A model generated the notes under the pieces. It had not been told where the DNA came from, did not search any database, and was given only the letters and a program-made list of their open reading frames with translations. A stretch of 64,000 nt of DNA from Aquanectria penicillioides (lineage: Eukaryota > Ascomycota > Sordariomycetes > Hypocreales > Nectriaceae), in contig PYIU01000001.1 of assembly GCA_003415625.1 (NCBI GenBank), positions 7,504,210 to 7,568,209 of the forward strand, written 5' to 3'. Shown here piece by piece: positions 8,981 to 54,099 of this stretch (within the stretch, counting starts at the first letter, position 1; the number at the start of each line of letters is the position of its first letter). Position numbers and translations under genes: made by a program.

Positions 8981-10127
8981 GAAAATTTAAAGAATGAACG
9001 AGTGTCGGTAGAATGAGTGACTGTGGAATGAGCGACAGAAAATGAGCGACAGAAGTTTGAAGAGCAAACGAAAGGACGGCGTCCCTTCACGCCGGGAGCT
9101 CAAGATGTAATAACCCACAACAAGGTTCAATGCCAATCAAACTAAGTTGACTACGCAAAAGCATTTCTTTCCGGCATCTCAGGCACGGCTTGCTGACTGG
9201 ACGAGATTGGCTGGATTCGGAGTCAAGACTGTGGCGTTGATAGACGCGCCTAGGAGCCGGGTAGGGGTTCAGATTTGGATTGGCTTGGCACTTGTAAGAT
9301 TTTGGGCGCACTACAGGGGACGTTGAGGTCGTGGGGATGCGGCTGAGCGGAGGCCATCTGCCAGACCATCGATTATTTCCCAACTAGTTCGACGCGGGGC
9401 TTTCAGCCCCTTGCAGCAGAATCCAGGGGGGATGCGCTGTCGCCCTACCTTCGGAAGCATAGGGCCGAGGGGATTGAGGGGCTACCCCGTAGTTAGTTAT
9501 TGTCCAGACCGTCCAGCGTGGAAAGGCGAGAGACTGCTTGTGACAGAGCACATGGGATGACAGCTCTCAGAAAATACGGGATCCCGTCCGCTCTCTCACA
9601 GGTAGTCAAGTTGAGAGGCGGCGAATTCTTACTCGGGTCGGTGGCAACCGGGAAACCCTCGTTGTCGTATGTTATTTTTGCCTTGTGTATTCCTTTTTCC
9701 GCTCTGTTGTGTGAAATCACATTCGTTGACAGAGTGTCAGCGAGCGGGTGCGCCACTTGGGAACTTGCGATGATTACATGGATATTAGTGTGGTCGACCT
9801 CAGACTGTTGTCGCACAGACAAAATACTGTACACACCACCCAATCCAAGCAGCGCCATTCCATTTTTAGTCTTACTGCAATAAAATCACAGACCAACTTG
9901 CTGCCATTTTACGGTAGTTTCTTTCACTTCCAGACGTTTAGAGGCGTGGAGGTGCATCAATTGGTCGTCAATTGCGCTGAGCTACCCTATATCATTACCA
10001 TGCCAACCTGGTGCCCGGTCCCCGCGACCATGGTCATGTCAGAAGCAAATTGGAATTGATCTACAAAGTCGTGTGAGAATTAACTCTTATTATATGCACT
10101 GACTTCGTGGAGAACAAGCTTGAGGTA
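8981..10127. other. Intergenic spacer
   Basis: Contains the 5' flank of the secreted-glycoprotein gene. Overlapping open frames of about 120 codons occur on both strands at 9490-9880, mirror each other and show no motif. No gene supported. Confidence 0.5.
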
Positions 10128-10472
10128 CTAGGGGGGATCTCTAAACCGACCCTTCCCTAGTGACAGATTCTCAATCACAGGGGGGTCATTAAGTTGGAAA
10201 AGCGACAGCGATTTGGAAAAAGTCCAGTACCTCTGTCACTAGGTATATAACTTATTAAGTATTTTAGGTCACTATGCACCATCGAGCCCCACTTTCTTTT
10301 TATATTTTTGTCCACCAAATTTAGTCAGAAATGTACATAAACTACAATAGAAATTAGGCGAGGCTTGAGGTCACTATTTTTTTCCAAATTGTGGTCGCTT
10401 TTCCAACTTAATGACCCCCCTGTGATTGAGAATCTGTCACTGGGGAAGGGTCGGTTTAGAGATCCCCCCTAG
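10128..10472. mobile_element. MITE with 79-bp terminal inverted repeats and TA target duplication
   Basis: The left arm (10128-10206) starts CTAGGGGGGATCTCTAAACC. The right arm (10394-10472) is its reverse complement with one mismatch over 79 bp, and weaker similarity continues inward. A TA dinucleotide flanks both ends (10126-10127 and 10473-10474), as expected for a Tc1/mariner-type insertion. The 187-bp centre is AT-rich and non-coding, so the element is non-autonomous. It lies 236 bp upstream of the gasdermin-like gene's ATG. Confidence 0.88.
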
Positions 10473-10708
10473 TAGGGTCACTATCACACCTGAGGTAATG
10501 AATGACCTTGCTTCTGTGTCAAATCCAACGGGCCTAGTGGCGGTGCATGCATGCGCTGAAAACAACATGCTGGCAAATCAGATCAAATCTCGTCGCTTAG
10601 GTACTCAATCCTGCTGCAAACACGACCGCTCTCGACTGCCTGAAATGAGAGTTTTCCTGCATCACCAGCTTCCACCCATCCCAATCTACACGCAGCGCGG
10701 CTTTAAAC

Positions 10709-11626
10709 ATGGTGAGAACCTATGTCCTCGCTCCCAACTGGACAACTGCTCCCCCGCCGGATGGACCAATCAAGCTCGGCCATATTCTAGATGACCTGAC
10801 CGAATTCGTGCCTCTCAACCGTCGCAACGTCCTTGAAATACCGGAAGACGACAAGAACCCCGTCGACACCAAGTCTGGCTTCACGACCTCTCGAAGCGAA
10901 CTTGTGTCTGGCGAACTCGGCGTCTTCGCTCGAGTCTTGGGCCTGGTGGGCGTTGGGGCAGGGGCTGACGTCTACTTCAAAAAGGACAAGAGTGATGTTC
11001 TGTCCTGTAAGAGATTGGACACAATGACTTTTGATCCCACCACCGACTACATTGCGAAAAGCGTCGAGTTTCCGGAAGTTAGCCAGTACCTTAAACTGAG
11101 AAAGTTCAAGGACCCCGTTTACAGTGAGTTGCCCTACCAAAGGTGGTTCATCTTGGCGATGAACCCTGAACATCTCTAGTCTTGAGGCTCTCGCTGACAT
11201 TGGGGGCCAGTGATAACTGGACTCAAAATTGGTCGCGAAGGCTCTCTCCAGAGCAGCCAGAGCAAGGAGAAAGGCCTCAAGTTGGACGGCGGCTTGAATC
11301 TTCCCGGAGCCCCCGTCCAGATCGGTGGTAAGGGTGGCTTGTCAACCTCGTCCGTGGAAGGCGAAAGCTGGGAGGACTCGACTGATTTCATTGTCGCTTT
11401 CCGCGTCAAGAAGATCTGGTATCATCGCGGAGCACTGCGGGACAAGACGTATCGGGACAAGGCCGTGATGCAGGATGGAGGTGCCCCCAAGGCCGCAAGC
11501 GCCATGGTTCTTATGTCTGATGACGATGTTACTGTTGACGACGTGTTTAGCGACCAGAGTTTGACTGCGTTGACGGAAGCCGAAAACGGAGAAGAAGTGG
11601 CTTGGATCGTTCCCCAGGTCGACTAG
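10709..11626 (+). CDS. Fungal gasdermin-like (HET-Q1-type) pore-forming protein
   Basis: Two exons, 10709-11123 and 11211-11626, joined by a GTGAGT..CCAG intron of 87 nt, give 276 aa. There is no signal peptide. Features matching my memory of fungal gasdermin-like proteins are an N-terminal GPIKLGHILDDL and VPLNRR segment, a hydrophobic Gly-rich stretch (FARVLGLVGVGAGADVYF, about 73-90), a strand motif PVYMITGLKIGR rebuilt across the splice (about 136-147), and a Gly/Ser-rich amphipathic region (about 160-185). An acidic tail begins near residue 241 (SDDD). Podospora HET-Q1 has a closely similar length, as I recall, and is cleaved in its C-terminal part by the subtilisin HET-Q2. The convergent neighbour here, 44 bp away, is a subtilisin gene. 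Once freed of its tail the protein would insert in the plasma membrane and kill the cell. The family call is by motif and context, not by alignment. Confidence 0.75.
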
Positions 11627-11670
11627 AACATGCAGATTGTCGCAAAATGACAGCGAGAAGCACACTTCAT

Positions 11671-14509
11671 CTACACATTCTTCAACGCCTCCTTCATCTT
11701 GCTGACTACGTCCGTTATGGTTGAATCCTTACTCCACATACTTCGCCACGGTGTAACAAAGTCGTATCCATCCCGGGGCTGCGGCTCACACATTGCAAGC
11801 ATGATGCACCTCATCCCCGAGCAACTGTAGGCGCCCATGCGCTGTGACTGCGTCATGAAGCCCTGGTCTGTCGCGTGCTGCACGAATCTGAGAACATTGG
11901 CCACAATGCCAGCAGCTACGGGGGCTGCGTAGGAAGTGCCCGAGATATACTGATCTTCCTCCCCTTGCCACTCGGACGGAATACACACGCCAAGGGTGCT
12001 GAGATTGTCCCTCCAACGCAATGGAGTGGGATCCAGCCCGCTCTTGTTGCCGTTTCCATCCCCCGCGTGGATGCAAAGCACTTGGTCCAGCTTTGCCGGG
12101 AAACATCTCGTCTCATTGCTGCCGTAATTTGACGCTGCTACAGTGCAGATAATCCCTGCCGACTCTGCGTCTCTAATGGCCGCTCTGATTGCCGCATTGC
12201 TGCTCGACATCCCAAAAGACATGTTGATGATGTGAACGTCGAGATCTATGGCCCATCTAATTGCCTGCACGTCTTGTTAGTACCTGCTGAGACGAGTTTG
12301 ATTAGTGGGAGTAGAGCTTACATCAATTATATGGTCCGTCCCCTCAACCTCATGACCGCTTGCAATCTTAGCCACGTACAAGTTGACCTCAGGGGCCATC
12401 TTCAATACAAGGGCGGCGACATTGGTCCCGTGTCCATCAGTATCGACGGCTGGGACGCCAGGAAGGAACGATTTCTGAAGCACAATTGGATTGTCGCGTT
12501 TCCTCCTGCTTCTCTTCGCTGCTCTGAAAAAGACATTTCTGTCATCAATACCAGTATCAAGAATAGCAACGTGAATACGCTGATCGCTAGGTAAGTCGTT
12601 TATGTGTTTTGTGTAGAAGTCATCAGCTCGCTCGAGAAAATCTTGTGCCCAAGTGCAACTGAAAAACACCGTCAGCTTCATTCATAACCCCCCCAGTGTT
12701 CTTCAGACCCTACCGTGAATCCATACATCCCTCGAGCAGTCTTATCCTAGTTTCATCAAATAGACCATGAGGCAGAGAAGGAGTAATTTGGGATTGGACA
12801 ATTTGAGTTTGGACGATTGTAAGGCGCTGCTCCTGCAATACTTTGACTGAGCCATTTTGACGACTGGGAATTTGTTGCTCCAGAACATCTCGAGGAACTT
12901 TAAGCGTCTTTGGCTGGTTGACGTCGCCCTTGGTTGCATAAGCAGTGCTCCAGGCCTCCTCGAGGTCTGCAACCGCGTCTCGGATAATATCTCTACATTG
13001 CTCCTCCTCGCTCTCATCCTCATCGTCATCCTTATTTGCCTTGAGACACTTCCTGACTGCGTACACGTATGCTGCCACCACATTTTCAGTAACAGTCCCT
13101 TTTTCTAGTTCGGCGAGTAATGAGATCTCTGGGCGGTCTGGACGTCGCTCGAACGGACCCAGGATTTTGCCGCATGCAATCTCCAGGAGTAACTTGGCGA
13201 AAGCGACCAAGATGGGAAATTTCCTCGGCGATGTAGGACCTATAGGTTTACCTTTGCCAGTGATGTAATAGTTTAGGTAAGGGTTATATATCTCGCAAGC
13301 GGTTTGCTGAGAGGACTCAAAGAGAAAGAAAAGATCTTCAGATGACCAGACGCAGCCGTCCATTCCCGTGCCGTACATGCGAAGTAGCATCCGACCCAAA
13401 TTCAATGCTAAGATCACTTTATCGTAAGGTCTGAGAGGATCCAAGTCAGACTTGAGAATCTCAGCCAATGAGAGAGTCGGCCACACAGGAGGACACTGGA
13501 TAGTTGTTGAGGAATCAGGATTCCATAAAAGGCCATCTCTATGCGAGAAAACATCCAGGGTCTCTTCGTTATCCAGATGATCTCGAATGGTTTTGCATGC
13601 ACGTTTCATAACCTTCAATGGACGCTTTGCAGGTGGCCTAGATGTGTTGTCAGTTGTATTTCAAGCTGATGAAGTTGATGGTTAGACTTGCAGTTCCGCT
13701 ACGACTTTACAAGTGGTCTGCTGCCATTTGTCCTCAACAGAGGAACATGAGAGAAACAGGTTGTGATCAAGGCCTTCTAAGATTTCAGTGCTCCACTTAG
13801 GCTCCCGAACCTGGATCTTGGCAACGTGCTGATGCTCGCAGCAATCAGCCTCGATGTTTTCCTTCAGACTTGTGATCAGACTCTGAAACGGTTCGTGGGA
13901 TGTGGAAGTGGATGTTTTGTCAGCCAAGTCTGGCGTGGATCGATACCAAGCATCCTGTCCCTCAGGCTCTTGTTCATCAGCGTCCTTCTTCGCGCATCTT
14001 TTTGAGTTATTGGTGTTGAACCTGGTCACTGCCTGCTCTGCTCTGCGGGACTCTTCGTTCGTGTCTGGGATATTGATGAGGTGAGATAGGTCTGTACCGT
14101 CCAAGTTATCGGTTGCTCGTCTGATCAAGGCCTTGAGCTTCGGAAACGCATTTGTGTCTGCAGTTTCACGTTCTTGATCAGTGGATGATGATTGTTTCTC
14201 AACTTGTATGTCAGTTGAACTTGACCCGGTAAGCACCTGATCGTCGATGAAACCCTCTAGCAATAGCCTGAGCTCCTGGAGGTCTCTCAAAAACTGCTTG
14301 TAGTCGTCCAGACCCATTTGTTGGTCTTTCCGTAGATGGAGAAACACCTGGTCCAGCTCAAAACTCATGGCATCCCTGGCATTTAAAACTGCCAAATTCG
14401 TACCATGCTCTCTCGCAGAAGCGATCCGTTTTGAAATGAGAGGCATTAGCTTTTGTCGAATGTCGACCAGCGCCTCTATTTCTGGCGCGTCTAGCTCCAT
14501 AGGCGCCAT
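11671..14509 (-). CDS. Subtilisin-like (S8) protease with N-terminal helical and DUF7580-like region, HET-Q2-type
   Basis: Four exons on the minus strand: 14509-13688, 13624-12714, 12658-12322, 12264-11671. They sum to 2664 nt (887 aa). Introns 2 and 3 are clear (GTAGGG..TTTTTCAG, GTAAGC..GTGCAG). The first is less certain because its donor and acceptor are weak. The cytosolic protein starts with a helical region (1-270), then a DUF7580-like middle (about 280-560) with an acidic DDDEDESEEE stretch. The subtilisin domain has Asp612 (ILDTGID), His654 (DTDGHGT), oxyanion Asn736 (AASNYG) and Ser801 (SGTSYAAP), all intact. There is no signal peptide or propeptide, unlike secreted subtilisins. An unusual basic run KRSRRKR lies between Asp and His. 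Likely role: cleaves and activates the neighbouring gasdermin-like protein. It shares a 295-bp promoter with the NACHT gene. Confidence 0.85.
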
Positions 14510-14804
14510 GGTAGTAGTGGTTGGAGTTTGAGGGAACTCTCTCAGCACAGGATCTGGGGCTTAGTTAGGTCAGTTGATCTGCCAGCCGGTGAGATGTTTA
14601 GCCGCGGGTCCTCCAGATCTCAAGTCAAAGAAAACCAAGTGATTGGCTGCAATAGGAGGCTGTGTCCCAGCCTTACCTGATGAGCAAATTTCATCTGCCC
14701 GCCCATGTCAGCACGCCAGTTGGAATCGCCTAGGGTTGGATGAATCTATTCTAAATTTCACATGGAATCTTGCGTGGGGCGGTTTATGCCGTGTCCACGA
14801 TCAA
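14510..14804. promoter_or_regulatory. Shared divergent promoter of S8 protease and NACHT genes
   Basis: Only 295 bp separate the two ATGs of the head-to-head genes. A reverse CCAAT box (GATTGG) is at 14641-14646 and a CCGCGG block near 14601. Such spacing suggests co-regulation. No TATA box stands out. Confidence 0.5.
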
Positions 14805-17800
14805 ATGACAACTTCCGCCTCGATCCAAGGAGTCGGCCACATTGGAGGTGAGCGCGCCGACGCCACCGAGGAAACGCGTGATATTTTCGATATCGCCGAA
14901 ACTTGCAAGGACTTGTTTTCCAACTATACAAGCGTTCCTTCGTCATGGTCGGATTCGCGCGCGAAGGCAGACCTTCAGCAGCAGCGCTTTTATGTCTGGG
15001 CGTCTTATCTTGGTGTGTTTGCTCCGTTCAACGCGTCGCTCGACAAGCGCCTGCAATATAGCGATGAAATCCGCAACCTCGTAGTGCAGATGCTGTCAGT
15101 CCTGCGAAGAAATTTGGAATTTCGTGAGTCTTCGGTTCACTATACAAAATCCTCATCGAGATCTGTTGCTGATGTCATGGTAGTCGCCTCGACGGACCAT
15201 GATGTTTCCGCCCACGACAAAGTCACCAGCACGGAGGGACTCGAAGGAACGCTCTCGGAAGCATTAGAAGCGATTGAAACCAGCATAAGCAGACTCAACC
15301 GTCTTGGAGCTACCATCAGAAAGTACTCTGCGTCCAGTCTAGATGAGCGCGTCAACGCCTTCACTCGAAGGCACGGGGACGAAAACTACACTCAGCTGGC
15401 AAGACACATTGTTCGGTTCAAGTACAAGACTGCGACTTCATCACTCCAGGAGCATCTGGCTCTCAGCATGTCATCTCGACGCCAGCGTCTCCGATACCTC
15501 CACAGACACCAATCCAAGCTCGCTCGTCGAATCAGCCCCGCGCCTAGTGAGAGGAGAGAGGAGAAGAGGGCTGGCCCCCGTACCTCACTAGCTCCAATTG
15601 TCGAGGACATTGAAGGGAAAGCACAAGAACCCTCCAACGATCCCAGGAGAAAGACACTGGCTTTGAGAAGGCGGCATCTTGGCCATTCTCCATTGCAGGG
15701 GGGGCGTTCTGAAACTAATGCCTCAAAGTTCATACCAACCCCGTCTGTGATTGCGAGGCTCAGACGAGGCGACGGCGCATCTGTTGTGTCCTCCTCGAAT
15801 CAGAGCTCTACATTTATGGCCGAGGCAATCGAACAATATCCAGATTCCCCCAAGCACGTCCCTGACCAACCGGAGCCCCCATGTCCGTATTGTTGTCAAC
15901 CACTGGAAGAAGGGGAGAGTATGGGGATAAAATGGGTGTATGTTTCTCTTTGGAAGTCTCTCAGACGACTCAGAATAGTACTCTACTAACGTTTCTTGCA
16001 GATGTCATGTTAACAAAGACATCCGCCCATTCATTTGTCTTTCGAACAAGTGCACACAAGGGCCACATAGCTTCGAGTACTTTAGCACATGGGCCAAACA
16101 CATGAGAGATGCCCACACAACCAAATGGCCACAGCAAATCCACAAGCCAATCATATGGGCTTGTGATGTTGATCACGACATGGAGGAGTTTTGCGAAGAG
16201 GACCTGTTCCAACAACACCTTGCCTTGCAGCACTCGGATTGCAAGGAGGAGGAAAAGCATGCAATTGCCGAATCTTGCCAGATAACTCGTAAGAGGCCGC
16301 GAAATATTTGCCCCATCTGTGGTTACGATCTTTCAAATGGAGAAAATTCTGACGAGGGGGGTCCCAAGATACGCGCAGCTGACGAATTCGCTCAACTTGA
16401 CGTGATGGCGAAGCATGTGGCAGGGCACCTTAGGCAGCTAGCATTCGACAGCTCCAAAAACCTTGAAGATGAAATGAAAAAAACGCCAGAGACAAGCTTG
16501 GTCACATCCGAAGCTGACCTTGCGGATAGAGACTCCGAGGTCCGTCGTCCTAGTGGAGCTGATCCGCTGGATGGCATCTCCTTGGAGTTTACGTCGACAG
16601 AGGCTAGCTTTGGCGATGCTCTACAGCAAATGTTGCATGACCATGATGGCCAGTGGTCATTGGACGAATTTCGAAGCTTGTTGGAGTTTCCAGAAGACCT
16701 CTCACCGGTGGCTGCGCAAGAATGGTCTGAAGTGCAACATGAACTTTCGGCATCGACTGACACAGAAATCGACACAGGGGCTCCAGATCCAATATTAAAG
16801 CACTTCCGACATCAGCAAAAAGGCAATACCATCGATCAACTCAAGGCCATACTTGAGCCTTCTCCATTTCCCGAAGATTTCTTTAGGTCTATGAATAGAT
16901 CTAGAGCTGTCGGGACCGGGGACTGGTTTCTCCATGACGAGAGCTTGCGCGCATGGCTGAACGGCGACAGACCATTCCTCTGGGTACCTGGCGCAGCCGG
17001 TACTGGTAAATCGTTTCTAATGACTCGAATACTCGCTTGGGGATTTGAAAACCTCTCTCATATGGGTTACTTCTACTTTCGAGACAACAATCCGGAAACA
17101 CGATCCGTTCGCCAGGCCCTCCGTGACGTCGCGTACCAGATCGGCGAGGGCAATGCCTTTTACGTTCAGCAGTTCCTTGACATCGTCGATAGTGGAGATC
17201 AACTCAAGACGATTCCAAGTTGCTTTCGGCGCTTGCTTGTGGAGCCATTCCGGGAAGATCCACAGATGAAGACCATATATATCTTCTTCGACGGTGTTAG
17301 TGAGGCGGACAAGGGTGAAGTCGATCAGCTACTTGAAGAACTCAGCGCATATTATGCGTCAGCGGAAAGGCCAGTTTCTCACAGACTGCAGATCGCTCTC
17401 TTTGGAAGATCTCATCTGACGGACACTGTTGCTTACTCACTTGATCCTATGGCTCAAGGCCGGTTGATCATGACTCACGTCACGGTCGATCGCTGCGCTA
17501 CTGACGTTAGCACTTTTATCACTGAAAGCATTCTTCATATGCCAGTATTTAAACGACTTTCCCAGGAGTTCGCAAATGAGGTCATTGATGCAATGATCGC
17601 ACAAGCAGATGGGCTATTCATCCTCGCTAAGTTTATGCTCGCCGAAGTTTCTCGCCAACGACACCCTCGCTCTATCCTGCAGAGCTTGCAATCGTATCCA
17701 AAAGAGATCTACGGCATGTTAATGCAATCTCTCAGACACCTTTCATACACCCAGCCCATTGATGAAATGTATGATCTCAATGAGATACTGTGCTGGGTAG

Positions 17801-18906
17801 CTTTTTCAGAGGAAGTATTGAGCCTGGGTCAACTGGAAGCCGTTCTCGCCCTCAAATTCGGCGATCCTCCGCTTTACTTGGAGAATATGCTTCGTGCGCA
17901 GTATGCTTGTTTTTTCGAACTCCAGCGGGAGGATGGTAAGACCACGGACGATTTGATCTCCTCGTTCCAACAGGGTCGCCGCCTCGAGGTCGCTTCAAGA
18001 AATCGTTCTCCACAACGTCCGGGGCCGCTCAATACTCCTGTCCGCCTCGGGGCCCCGCCCAGTTCTCCTCTTGGTCGCCGTTCATCGGACCTTTTAGACC
18101 CAACGACGGAACTTGAATTTCATTCCGATAAAGCGACTACGCGGGTATCATTCTTCCACAATTCAGTACAGGAGTTCTTCAGGACGCATGATTCCACAAG
18201 TCTTACTTCAGTCCCAGATGGAGTATCAATTGGGATTAATCCGGCTAATGCCAAGATAAACATTCTGGAAACGTGTCTTTCTATGTTAACAGACAGATCG
18301 TGGGTTGAAAAACATACAATGGGCACCAAGGGCGAATCAATCAGAGAATACGCAGCGTATTATTGGCAAGAACATCTCATATCCGTCGATCTAGACACAG
18401 TACCCTCTGATACCAAAGAAGATCTCGGACCCCAGTTATTCAAAATGCTCACAGATGATGACGTGATCCTTGAATGGACCCTTAAGTTCAACAATGTTGA
18501 TGAGGGTCATAAAGTCTTCACATATAAGAGCATCAAGGTTCTCGAAGAGTGGATGACAGACCGAGACGTTCTTGCAGGTCTATCAGCTGAATCCAGTGCT
18601 TGGGTTTCTGAAGAGGTTCCCAAGCGGCCTGGAATTTTCAGGCCCATCGGAGATCTGTACGCTCAGGCATGGCTATCTGAAGATTTCCCCCGAGATATCT
18701 CAGCCAGATTCTGTTTTGAGGTCGTCAGCGTCATCGCATTCATGGAGGATGGCTACCCCTGGTCTGATGCTACAACCCAGTTGACCGATATTCCCATCAA
18801 CGAAAGGGTTATTAAAGCGGCTGCCTGGGCAAATATCAAGGAGACGGCTCACTACAACCGTCGTCTCAAGATGTGTATGGTTGAAGGTCAATCTGAGTCT
18901 AGCTAG
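14805..18906 (+). CDS. Zinc-finger NACHT STAND NTPase (NLR-like sensor)
   Basis: Two exons, 14805-15937 and 16002-18906, with a GTATGT..CTAAC..GCAG intron of 64 nt, give 1345 aa. The start is the first ATG in frame (14805). Residues 1-230 form a helical N-terminal domain found in many fungal C2H2/NACHT proteins. About 230-350 is basic and low-complexity. About 360-520 holds Cys/His pairs of degenerate C2H2 type (CPYC, HMRDAH, CPICGYD, HVAGH). The NACHT domain follows, with Walker A GAAGTGKS at 708-715 and Walker B IFFDGVSEAD with its first Asp at 808. A winged-helix-like region ends in VSFFHNSVQEFFR. No WD40, ankyrin or TPR repeats follow, so the C-terminus differs from classical fungal NLRs. 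Predicted role: nucleotide-dependent oligomerising sensor that signals to the co-expressed protease. The link to the protease is inferred from gene order. Confidence 0.85.
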
Positions 18907-52795: not shown

Positions 52796-54099
52796 TTAGG
52801 GCACAGTCGAGAGGTTGTAAATCTTCTGATGCCACTGTAGCCATGACCTGCTGCTTCTTGTAAGATGATTCGCAGTGTGTAGTGCTAGCAAATCAAACTG
52901 AGCCTGGGAGGTTTGGTTAGAGAATCGCTGTCTCTGCCTGGCCCAATTTACCAGTACAGCATAGAGGGTCTCTGAGTGGTCTGGACATTGTGATATCTGC
53001 TCCATTTCTGATGAGGGCTTTGAGCGTGTGCTTGCATTCTCTCATCACCACTATATGCATAGGAGCGTGTCCATCGCCGGTCAAGGCTCCAAGATCCGCA
53101 CCCGTTTCAACTAGAAGGTCAATCATCTTCACCTTGTCAGTACTTGCCGCCCACTGAATTGACATACCATCATTGGAAGCTAATTGGTTAATGGGCGCCC
53201 CATTCTCCGGAAGAAGCATCGCGATTTCAACATAGCTGTTCAGCGCAGTGATGTGAAGTGGCGAGCCTGCATTGATCTGGTCAGAGAACTCGCATTTCCC
53301 CTAAGCGATGAATTGATTGCTGCTACATCCCCTTTCTCTGCTGATGCTATCAGAGCCCTCGAAGTTCCGTCTCCTAAAGCAGTTCCATGATTTTCAGGAG
53401 CTTCTGGACTCGATCCACCAGTCCAATTGTTGTATCAGAATCTCTCCCAGCAGCCAAGGCCTCATGAAAGCCTTCTGCTTCCGTTGAGTTGATATGGCAT
53501 GCAGAATTAGCCCCCTTGCTAGGAAGTAGCTTGGTGAGGTCAACGTTGCCTGCAGACACCGCAGTACAGAGTGGAGTTAGATTCCGCCCTGTGGCGAAAT
53601 CAACATTTTCATCCCCGTCCAGGATAAATATGGTAATCTCTCTGAATTCATGAAGTACAGAAAGGTAGAGAGGAACCATTACTTCACTGTTTGCGGCTTG
53701 GAGGTTGGCTCCTCTCTCAACTAACAACTTGAGAACCTCGCGTTGGCCGAAAATTGTCGCAATAGGTACTGAGGTATTCCTAAAGTCATCATTGACTTCC
53801 AAGTCTACAAAAAGCTCCTCAAGCATAAGTTTTACTACTTCGACACGGCCGTTTTTTGCGGCTTCATGAATCGGCGCGGTTCCTTTCTCAGGGCGGATGT
53901 TGGGATCAGCGGCACCCTCCATTACTAGAGTTCTGATGAATTCCACATGACCCTGTGTTGCTGCTGAGTACACCAATGACCATTTCTCTCTTGGCCGTGT
54001 ACCAGCAAAACTAGTTTTACCGGGAAACGACAACCAATGGGCCCATTTACCAACGATCCCATTTGGGAGAAAGTCTGGGAAGCAGGCGAACATGCACAT
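52796..54099 (-). pseudogene. Ankyrin-repeat protein, broken by frameshifts
   Basis: The longest frame (54099-53374) carries ankyrin units such as YSAATQGHVEFIRTLVMEGA, APIHEAAKNGRVEVVKLML and VLKLLVERGANL. It stops near 53375, but the next units (ALIASAEKGDVAAIN, then SPLHITALNSYVEIAMLL, then IQWAASTDKVKMIDLLVETGADL) lie in shifting frames down to about 52800. At least three frame changes (near 53375, 53295 and 52960) are needed to join them. A relic, or a very error-prone stretch. Ankyrin repeats are protein-interaction modules and are often the sensor part of fungal NLRs. Confidence 0.7.

What the first reader, a model, noticed from the sequence alone, without database searches (positions are those of the whole stretch)
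10709..18906. Gasdermin-like, subtilisin and NACHT genes form one cell-death island
A gasdermin-like gene lies tail-to-tail with a cytosolic S8 protease carrying all catalytic residues, and that protease shares a 295-bp divergent promoter with a zinc-finger NACHT protein. Fungal gasdermins are known to be activated by adjacent proteases (Podospora het-Q1/het-Q2). A separate NLR-type gene beside the pair suggests a full sensor-protease-pore pathway, analogous in logic to animal inflammasomes. I infer the three-part circuit from gene order.
Basis: partly seen in the sequence, partly recalled or inferred. Interest (0 to 1): 0.92.

Follow-up and report, generated by a model that had tools for sequence, protein, structure and literature searches.

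The report
Fungal gasdermin, protease and bait-sensor genes
A fungus carries a compact cell-death kit: a pore protein, the protease that probably unlocks it, and a zinc-finger sensor gene whose constant half recurs in its genome with the tail swapped, some tails resembling other cell proteins, which suggests how such kits detect danger.

The parts
10709..11626 (+). Fungal gasdermin gene, exons 10709-11123 and 11211-11626, 276 aa; core to about residue 210-220, then a variable linker and an acidic tail with an EEVxWIxP-like end
11671..14509 (-). DUF7580-subtilisin (S8) executor gene, exons 14509-13688, 13624-12714, 12658-12322, 12264-11671; 887 aa in the model used (intron 1 uncertain)
11627..11670 (.). 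44-bp tail-to-tail spacer between gasdermin and protease coding regions
14510..14804 (.). 295-bp head-to-head intergenic region between protease and sensor start codons (candidate shared promoter)
   Evidence: promoter function not tested
14805..18906 (+). Helical/zinc-finger/NACHT gene, exons 14805-15937 and 16001-18906, 1345 aa
14877..15533 (+). Helical part of the constant N-module (residues 25-243), predicted helical; weak HeLo similarity
15882..16427 (+). Zinc-finger array of the constant N-module (residues 360-520, spans the intron): C360 C363 H380 C390 C395 H411 H416 H425 C432 H436 H450 H455 C481 C484 H516 H520
   Evidence: each position kept in at least 17 of the 17-19 sequences aligned there; metal binding not tested
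16911..17369 (+). NACHT/NPHP3_N domain (residues 682-834), Walker A at residue 708

Best explanation
A three-gene regulated-cell-death unit of the fungal gasdermin kind, in which the protease is an executor and a head-to-head partner gene is the sensor. The sensor has a constant half (helical region plus zinc-finger array) that communicates with the DUF7580 half of the partner, and an exchangeable C-terminal half that sets what is detected. Here that half is a NACHT ATPase without repeats; in sister units it can be a relative of one of the fungus's own signalling proteins. When the C-terminal half is disturbed (ligand or nucleotide-driven assembly for NACHT; binding or modification by an intruder's protein, or a mismatched allele, for the copied domains), the constant half releases or clusters the DUF7580-S8 protease. 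The protease then cuts the gasdermin in the linker after the core (about residue 210-240), the acidic tail is lost, and the pore domain assembles and kills the hyphal compartment. Shown here by sequence: gene structures, domains, catalytic and Cys/His residues, gasdermin fold, recurring linkage and orientation, co-divergence of the constant modules, swapping of both outer arms, and the association of gasdermin with the S8 arm. Inferred: protein contacts, direction of signalling, cleavage, pore, and the bait role.
For: Gasdermin sequence and fold. Protease D/H/N/S present in the window. Consecutive locus tags for all three genes in F. nematophilum (ACJ41O_015088/089/090) and F. lateritium (ACHAPT_009169/170/171), and a gasdermin two tags from an N-module protein in three more species. 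In this genome two queries chosen without regard to pairing find 13 N-module loci, 11 of them within 5 kb of one of 15 DUF7580 loci; binomial null 4e-26. A third query, itself from a paired locus, adds one more paired locus (distance taken by hand), giving 12 of 14. In 11 of the 12 pairs the 5' ends face (strands). Distances between DUF7580 domains and between N-modules correlate over 12 pairs (Mantel r 0.44, 3 of 10,000 permutations as high). Gasdermin lies beside 6 of 7 DUF7580-S8 loci and was seen at 0 of 8 without S8. C-terminal swaps. The RhoGEF arm is 52-66% identical, piece by piece, to a free RhoGEF of the same genome, the RasGEF arm 49-50%. Window versus F. lateritium: helical and zinc-finger parts 76-79% identical, NACHT and C-terminal parts 52-54%.
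Against: No biochemical or genetic evidence. The islands may be old duplicates of one linked unit, so the binomial null overstates independence; linkage kept at roughly 20-40% identity is suggestive, not proof, of joint function. 2 of 14 N-module loci and 3 of 15 DUF7580 loci are unpaired. 4 of 12 gasdermin loci show no S8 in the short flanks held. 11 of 18 N-module homologues in the database gave no sign of a gasdermin neighbour either way. One DUF7580-S8 pair (C12:3.155M) has no gasdermin in the 12.4 kb read. Of the 8 DUF7580 loci without S8, three were only scanned, and the genome-wide scans did miss one real gasdermin (C8). In some islands (C12:3.24M RasGEF, C7 HBS1_N, C8) the C-terminal domain sits in a separate open frame, and fusion across an intron is assumed. 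The helical part is not securely HeLo. Only two of the copied domains were compared with free copies.
Confidence: 0.62

Rival explanations
1. Inflammasome-like NLR reading: the NACHT protein is a true NLR that assembles on a ligand and recruits the protease by proximity; the zinc-finger half is only an adaptor, and other islands are unrelated versions.
For: Intact Walker A and a Walker B-like stretch; a NACHT-bearing relative linked in F. nematophilum and F. lateritium; NACHT in the C3:2.20M island and an NB-ARC-like stretch, by eye only, in C8.
Against: NACHT is one of at least eight C-terminal types found on the same module; no superstructure repeats found in the window protein; the closest NACHT relative in the genome (C9, 52-62%) showed no N-module match.
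Confidence: 0.25
2. Ordinary two-gene HET-Q1/HET-Q2-like pair; the third gene is a bystander that happens to share a promoter.
For: Reviews describe gasdermin-protease two-gene clusters (PMC10197012 section 15; PMC12881547 passages), and the passages seen mention no third gene for HET-Q1/HET-Q2.
Against: 12 of 14 N-module loci next to DUF7580 loci, 11 of 12 pairs with facing 5' ends; co-divergence; three consecutive tags in two other species.
Confidence: 0.08
3. Allorecognition (het) locus: the exchangeable arm detects allelic partners of fungal self rather than intruders.
For: RCD-1 and HET-Q1, the two gasdermin systems described in the review passages, control allorecognition (PMC12881547); the NACHT and C-terminal region differs more than the N-module between species.
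Against: No within-species alleles were available; copies of signalling proteins look more like baits for foreign effectors. Not exclusive with the best explanation, since it concerns the trigger and not the circuit.
Confidence: 0.25
4. The zinc-finger gene is a transcription regulator of its divergent neighbour.
For: Conserved Cys/His positions in C2H2-like spacing; divergent promoter.
Against: Fusion to NACHT, RhoGEF-CNH, annexin, kinase and CHAT-TPR arms fits a cytosolic receptor better; the two Pfam C2H2 matches seen in sister copies are below cut-off, though one database homologue (P0013) bears Pfam C2H2 domains.
Confidence: 0.06

Closest known systems
Podospora anserina HET-Q1/HET-Q2 and fungal gasdermin-protease (Q2L) two-gene clusters
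   Same: Gasdermin with a short C-terminal tail beside a multidomain S8 protease; proteolytic activation reported there (PMC10197012 section 15 and PMC12881547 passages; the primary paper PMC8851545 is not held)
   Different: A third gene family, mostly head-to-head with the DUF7580 gene, with a constant zinc-finger module and swappable arms; sister units lack S8 and gasdermin and carry PNP_UDP or nothing recognised
Plant head-to-head sensor/helper NLR pairs with integrated decoys
   Same: Head-to-head pair, one partner executing, the other carrying extra domains thought to act as decoys (introduction passages of PMC12258605; of PMC4246468 only the listing with the start of its abstract was seen)
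   Different: The executor is not an NLR, several sensors have no recognised NB domain, and the output is a protease plus gasdermin
Fungal NLRs with putative integrated decoys, Sordariales survey (PMC12258605)
   Same: Kinase domains proposed as decoys in fungal receptors
   Different: That survey examined NLR-NLR pairs, found 13 head-to-head among 225 two-NLR clusters and called them rare; the pairs here are not NLR-NLR and would not have been counted (passages read)
Animal inflammasome - caspase-1 - GSDMD
   Same: Logic of sensor, protease and pore as separate proteins
   Different: Subtilisin instead of caspase; no PYD or CARD match found; the constant module is a zinc-finger/helical domain

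Membership tests
Fungal gasdermin (RCD-1/HET-Q1 kind) | Gasdermin N-terminal pore-forming fold | tested here: met
Fungal gasdermin (RCD-1/HET-Q1 kind) | Short C-terminal region after the core | tested here: met
   Roughly 60-70 residues after the FIVAFRVKKIW core end in the 25-row alignment; that part is low-confidence in the model
Fungal gasdermin (RCD-1/HET-Q1 kind) | Activation by cleavage (HET-Q1) or allelic partner (RCD-1), and pore formation | not testable with these tools
   needs experiment
HET-Q2-like (Q2L) S8 protease of a gasdermin cluster | Complete S8 catalytic residues | tested here: met
   D612 H654 N736 S801; Peptidase_S8 2.8e-23
HET-Q2-like (Q2L) S8 protease of a gasdermin cluster | Gene adjacent to a gasdermin gene | tested here: met
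   44 bp apart; adjacent tags in F. nematophilum and F. lateritium, and in F. solani for a DUF7580 homologue without a called S8
HET-Q2-like (Q2L) S8 protease of a gasdermin cluster | Cleaves the gasdermin | not testable with these tools
   needs experiment
NLR / STAND receptor (window third gene) | NACHT or NB-ARC nucleotide-binding domain with Walker motifs | tested here: met
   NPHP3_N 6.8e-24, Walker A GAAGTGKS
NLR / STAND receptor (window third gene) | C-terminal superstructure repeats (WD40, TPR, ANK, HEAT) | tested here: not met
   No repeat family in the 1345-aa protein in the Pfam scan to E 0.1
NLR / STAND receptor (window third gene) | N-terminal HeLo-type death domain | tested here: inconclusive
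Paired head-to-head sensor/helper receptors with integrated decoys (plant kind) | Recurring gene pair with facing 5' ends | tested here: met
   11 of 12 pairs (strands); in one of the 11 (C2) a gasdermin lies between
Paired head-to-head sensor/helper receptors with integrated decoys (plant kind) | One partner carries swapped-in copies of cell proteins | tested here: met
   RhoGEF-CNH, annexin, RasGEF, kinase, HBS1_N arms; free relatives in the same genome shown for RhoGEF and RasGEF only; that they act as decoys was not tested
Paired head-to-head sensor/helper receptors with integrated decoys (plant kind) | Both partners are NLRs | tested here: not met
   No NB domain in the DUF7580-S8 protein
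Animal-type inflammasome | Death-fold (PYD/CARD) adaptor and caspase | tested here: not met
   No such Pfam match in the three proteins to E 0.1

The most novel reading that the evidence does not exclude
A previously undescribed class of fungal paired immune receptors: a DUF7580 executor and a helical/zinc-finger sensor encoded head-to-head, with both outer arms exchangeable. Executor arms (S8 plus gasdermin, or PNP_UDP) set how the cell responds; sensor arms are integrated copies of hub proteins (Rho and Ras exchange factors, annexin, kinase, HBS1, HSP70) that act as baits. Fungi would thus have arrived independently at the plant integrated-decoy solution and wired it to a gasdermin.
Probability: 0.45. 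Interest if true: 0.94.

Novelty: new variant of a known kind. Interest (0 to 1): 0.86.

Why it matters
A 2025 review calls the nature of the stimuli that activate fungal cell-death sensors, gasdermin-linked ones included, a major open question (PMC12881547, passage read). Here a sensor gene can be named by position, and its exchangeable arm gives direct candidates for what is guarded: Rho-GEF, Ras-GEF, annexin, HSP70, kinases. The same arrangement splits into testable halves: constant module against executor, arm against trigger. If the bait reading holds, the integrated-decoy principle of plant immunity would also exist in fungi as gene pairs, where a recent survey of NLR-NLR pairs in Sordariales judged head-to-head pairs rare.
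Full report
WHAT IS THERE. The window lies in a 53.8-Mb, 13-contig fungal genome. The closest protein relatives are from Fusarium nematophilum and F. lateritium, so it is probably a Fusarium-like Nectriaceae; the species is not established. Three genes occupy 10709-18906. The gasdermin gene (276 aa, one intron) and the protease gene end 44 bp apart. The protease and the zinc-finger NACHT gene start 295 bp apart in opposite directions.

THE GASDERMIN. Pfam is silent, but phmmer against solved structures gives RCD-1-2 at 2.6e-8 and RCD-1-1 at 2.7e-5. 54 database proteins match at E 1e-3, the best at 85% (F. nematophilum) and 79% (F. lateritium). The spliced window protein was not folded; its orthologue P0019 was, with mean pLDDT 68: several core blocks are above 90, while residues 63-84, 167-186 and most of the tail are below 50. 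Foldseek and VIA put gasdermins first. After the core a variable linker and an acidic tail follow; a WI.P-like end is recognisable in many of the 25 aligned rows. I take the linker as the likely place of cleavage; for HET-Q1 a review reports loss of about 5 kDa, likely by a cut at F238 (PMC12881547, passage).

THE PROTEASE. DUF7580 (residues 206-492) and Peptidase_S8 (605-820); D612, H654, N736 and S801 are present. The same four residues are present in five sister proteases (C12:3.155M, C10, C3:2.20M, C1:8.07M, C2:2.07M) and in C1:0.65M, whose neighbour is also a gasdermin; in the C8 copy D, H and N are seen and the Ser region was not covered.

THE THIRD GENE. Residues 25-243 are predicted helical. 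Residues 360-520 hold sixteen Cys/His positions, each kept in at least 17 of the 17-19 sequences aligned there. Residues 682-834 are NACHT/NPHP3_N; no repeat family follows. Its NACHT and C-terminal part are 52-62% identical to a gene on contig C9 that no N-module query matched, so NACHT and N-module have been joined or separated in evolution.

LINKAGE IN OTHER FUNGI. Locus tags show three consecutive genes in F. nematophilum (ACJ41O_015088 zinc-finger NACHT, 015089 S8, 015090 gasdermin) and F. lateritium (ACHAPT_009169 gasdermin, 009170 S8, 009171 zinc-finger NACHT). In F. solani a DUF7580 homologue (NW759_009034, no S8 called) is next to a gasdermin (009035). In Neocosmospora mangrovei, Conoideocrella luteorostrata and Hirsutella minnesotensis a gasdermin lies two tags from an N-module protein; the gene between was not seen. 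In Coniochaeta sp. 2T2.1 and Colletotrichum destructivum the two proteins report the same longest contig length, which suggests but does not show one contig. The other 11 of 18 N-module hits gave no evidence either way. Adjacency from tag numbers is an inference. The protease search scored only part of its candidates and returned six proteins, five of them from Fusarium.

LINKAGE WITHIN THIS GENOME. DUF7580: 19 matches, merged by me to 15 loci. N-module: two queries (the window's, and a Trichoderma protein's; E 0.01) give 13 loci, of which 11 lie within 5 kb of a DUF7580 locus; random placement gives 4e-26, a figure made too small by duplication of linked units. A third query, taken from a locus already known to be paired, adds C2:2.07M, also paired (about 3.2 kb, by hand). 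Totals: 12 of 14 N-module loci and 12 of 15 DUF7580 loci paired. Unpaired: N-modules C6:4.35M and C10:3.79M, DUF7580 loci C12:3.29M, C6:4.18M and C7:1.19M. Counts from such scans are lower bounds. In 11 of 12 pairs the 5' ends face each other (in the C2 pair a gasdermin lies between); in C8 both are on + with a divergent gasdermin between. Over the 12 pairs the distance matrices of the two families correlate (Mantel r 0.44; 3 of 10,000 permutations reach it), so pairs have tended to stay together. For example C8, C12:3.24M and C2 are close on both sides, as are C1:8.07M and C3:1.68M; C7 and C1:2.44M are close on the N-module side and less so on the DUF7580 side.

BOTH OUTER ARMS SWAP. Executor side: an S8 match within 5 kb of 7 of 15 DUF7580 loci; PNP_UDP_1 in the same frame as DUF7580 in C12:3.24M and C3:1.68M; nothing further recognised in C7 (Pfam) or in the frames read of C1:2.44M and C1:7.79M. 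Gasdermin: 6 of the 7 S8 loci (window, C1:8.07M, C3:2.20M, C10:3.52M, C2:2.07M, C8:4.21M); none seen at the 8 others, of which five were read and three only scanned. The C8 gasdermin is weak (E about 1e-4 in the local set) and was missed by the genome-wide scans, so the scanned-only loci are weak negatives. Sensor side in this genome: NACHT (window), WH_RGF3-RhoGEF-CNH (C1:8.07M), NACHT_N-NACHT-WD40 (C3:2.20M), annexin (C10), kinase (C1:7.79M, C2; weak in C12:3.155M), RasGEF (C12:3.24M), HBS1_N (C7), NB-ARC-like by eye only with no Pfam match (C8), coiled coil by eye (C1:2.44M); the C3:1.68M arm was not read to its end. Zinc-finger part and arm share one open frame in the window, C1:8.07M, C10 and C1:7.79M. 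Fusion is likely for C3:2.20M, C12:3.155M and C2, and assumed for C12:3.24M, C7 and C8. In database proteins: CHAT-TPR, HSP70, FHA, transglutaminase/Rad4 and a weak S33 hydrolase (seven of the 18 scanned), and kinase plus HET by precomputed Pfam. CHAT is itself the other gasdermin-linked protease class (PMC10197012 section 15), so in Coniochaeta, Hirsutella and Conoideocrella the sensor module is fused to a CHAT domain (for one, precomputed Pfam for the others).

WHY BAITS. The RhoGEF arm is 52-66% identical, over three pieces, to a free RhoGEF at C8:3.17M and the RasGEF arm 49-50% to a free RasGEF at C7:1.93M. Between the window and F. lateritium the helical and zinc-finger parts are 76-79% identical, the linkers 59-66%, the NACHT and C-terminal parts 52-54%; against F. 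nematophilum 71-78% and 54%, with most of the C-terminus missing there. A slowly changing coupling module with faster-changing or replaced outer domains is what a sensor of changing threats should show. This is inference; the kinase, annexin and HBS1 arms were not compared with free copies.

GASDERMIN COUNT. 12 loci in all (10 at E 1, one more, one; C3:1.84M is only E 0.18). Six are in three-gene units, two more have an S8 neighbour without an N-module seen (C1:0.65M, C2:1.66M), and four have no S8 in the short flanks held. At one of these four, C8:4.75M, a stop-containing gasdermin lies beside a weak N-module-like hit.

COMPARISON WITH THE LITERATURE. Reviews describe gasdermin-protease two-gene clusters (about 63% with S8, 19% with CHAT) in which the protease protein is the sensor (PMC10197012, section 15 read). 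The 2025 review repeats this, mentions 'two- or three-gene clusters', and calls the activating stimuli an open question (PMC12881547, passages). A Sordariales survey found 13 head-to-head NLR pairs among 225 two-NLR clusters and judged them rare, with C-terminal kinases as good candidates for integrated decoys (PMC12258605, passages). The pairs here are not NLR-NLR and would have escaped it. DUF7580 occurs in no paper of the library.

VERDICT. Observation confirmed.

Noticed in passing
window 10126-10474: Inverted repeat, 96-nt arms 96% complementary with 157 nt between, just upstream of the gasdermin gene; looks like a small foldback or MITE-type element.
   Followed up: no
G000 C8:4753019-4754518 (L018, L019): Gasdermin-like stretch with in-frame stops beside a weak N-module-like match; perhaps a decayed island.
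   Followed up: partly
G000 C9:3507620-3511801 (L032, L033): Long open frame with a NACHT and following region 52-62% identical to the window's but no N-module match; apparent relative of the window's NACHT arm.
   Followed up: partly
G000 C12:3234568-3240889 and C3:1680233-1686567 (L045, L034, L046): Pairs in which DUF7580 carries PNP_UDP instead of S8 and no gasdermin is seen: a possible non-gasdermin output of the same pair design.
   Followed up: partly
P0004-P0006 (Coniochaeta, Hirsutella, Conoideocrella): The N-module is fused to CHAT domains with TPR-type repeats, the caspase-like class also linked to fungal gasdermins.
   Followed up: partly
window 3161-58264 outside the island: Ten further frames scanned: mannosyltransferase, NmrA, epimerase, beta-lactamase fold, short-chain dehydrogenase, two MFS, one ankyrin frame (53374-54099), two without match; none is recognisably a further cell-death gene.
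   Followed up: no
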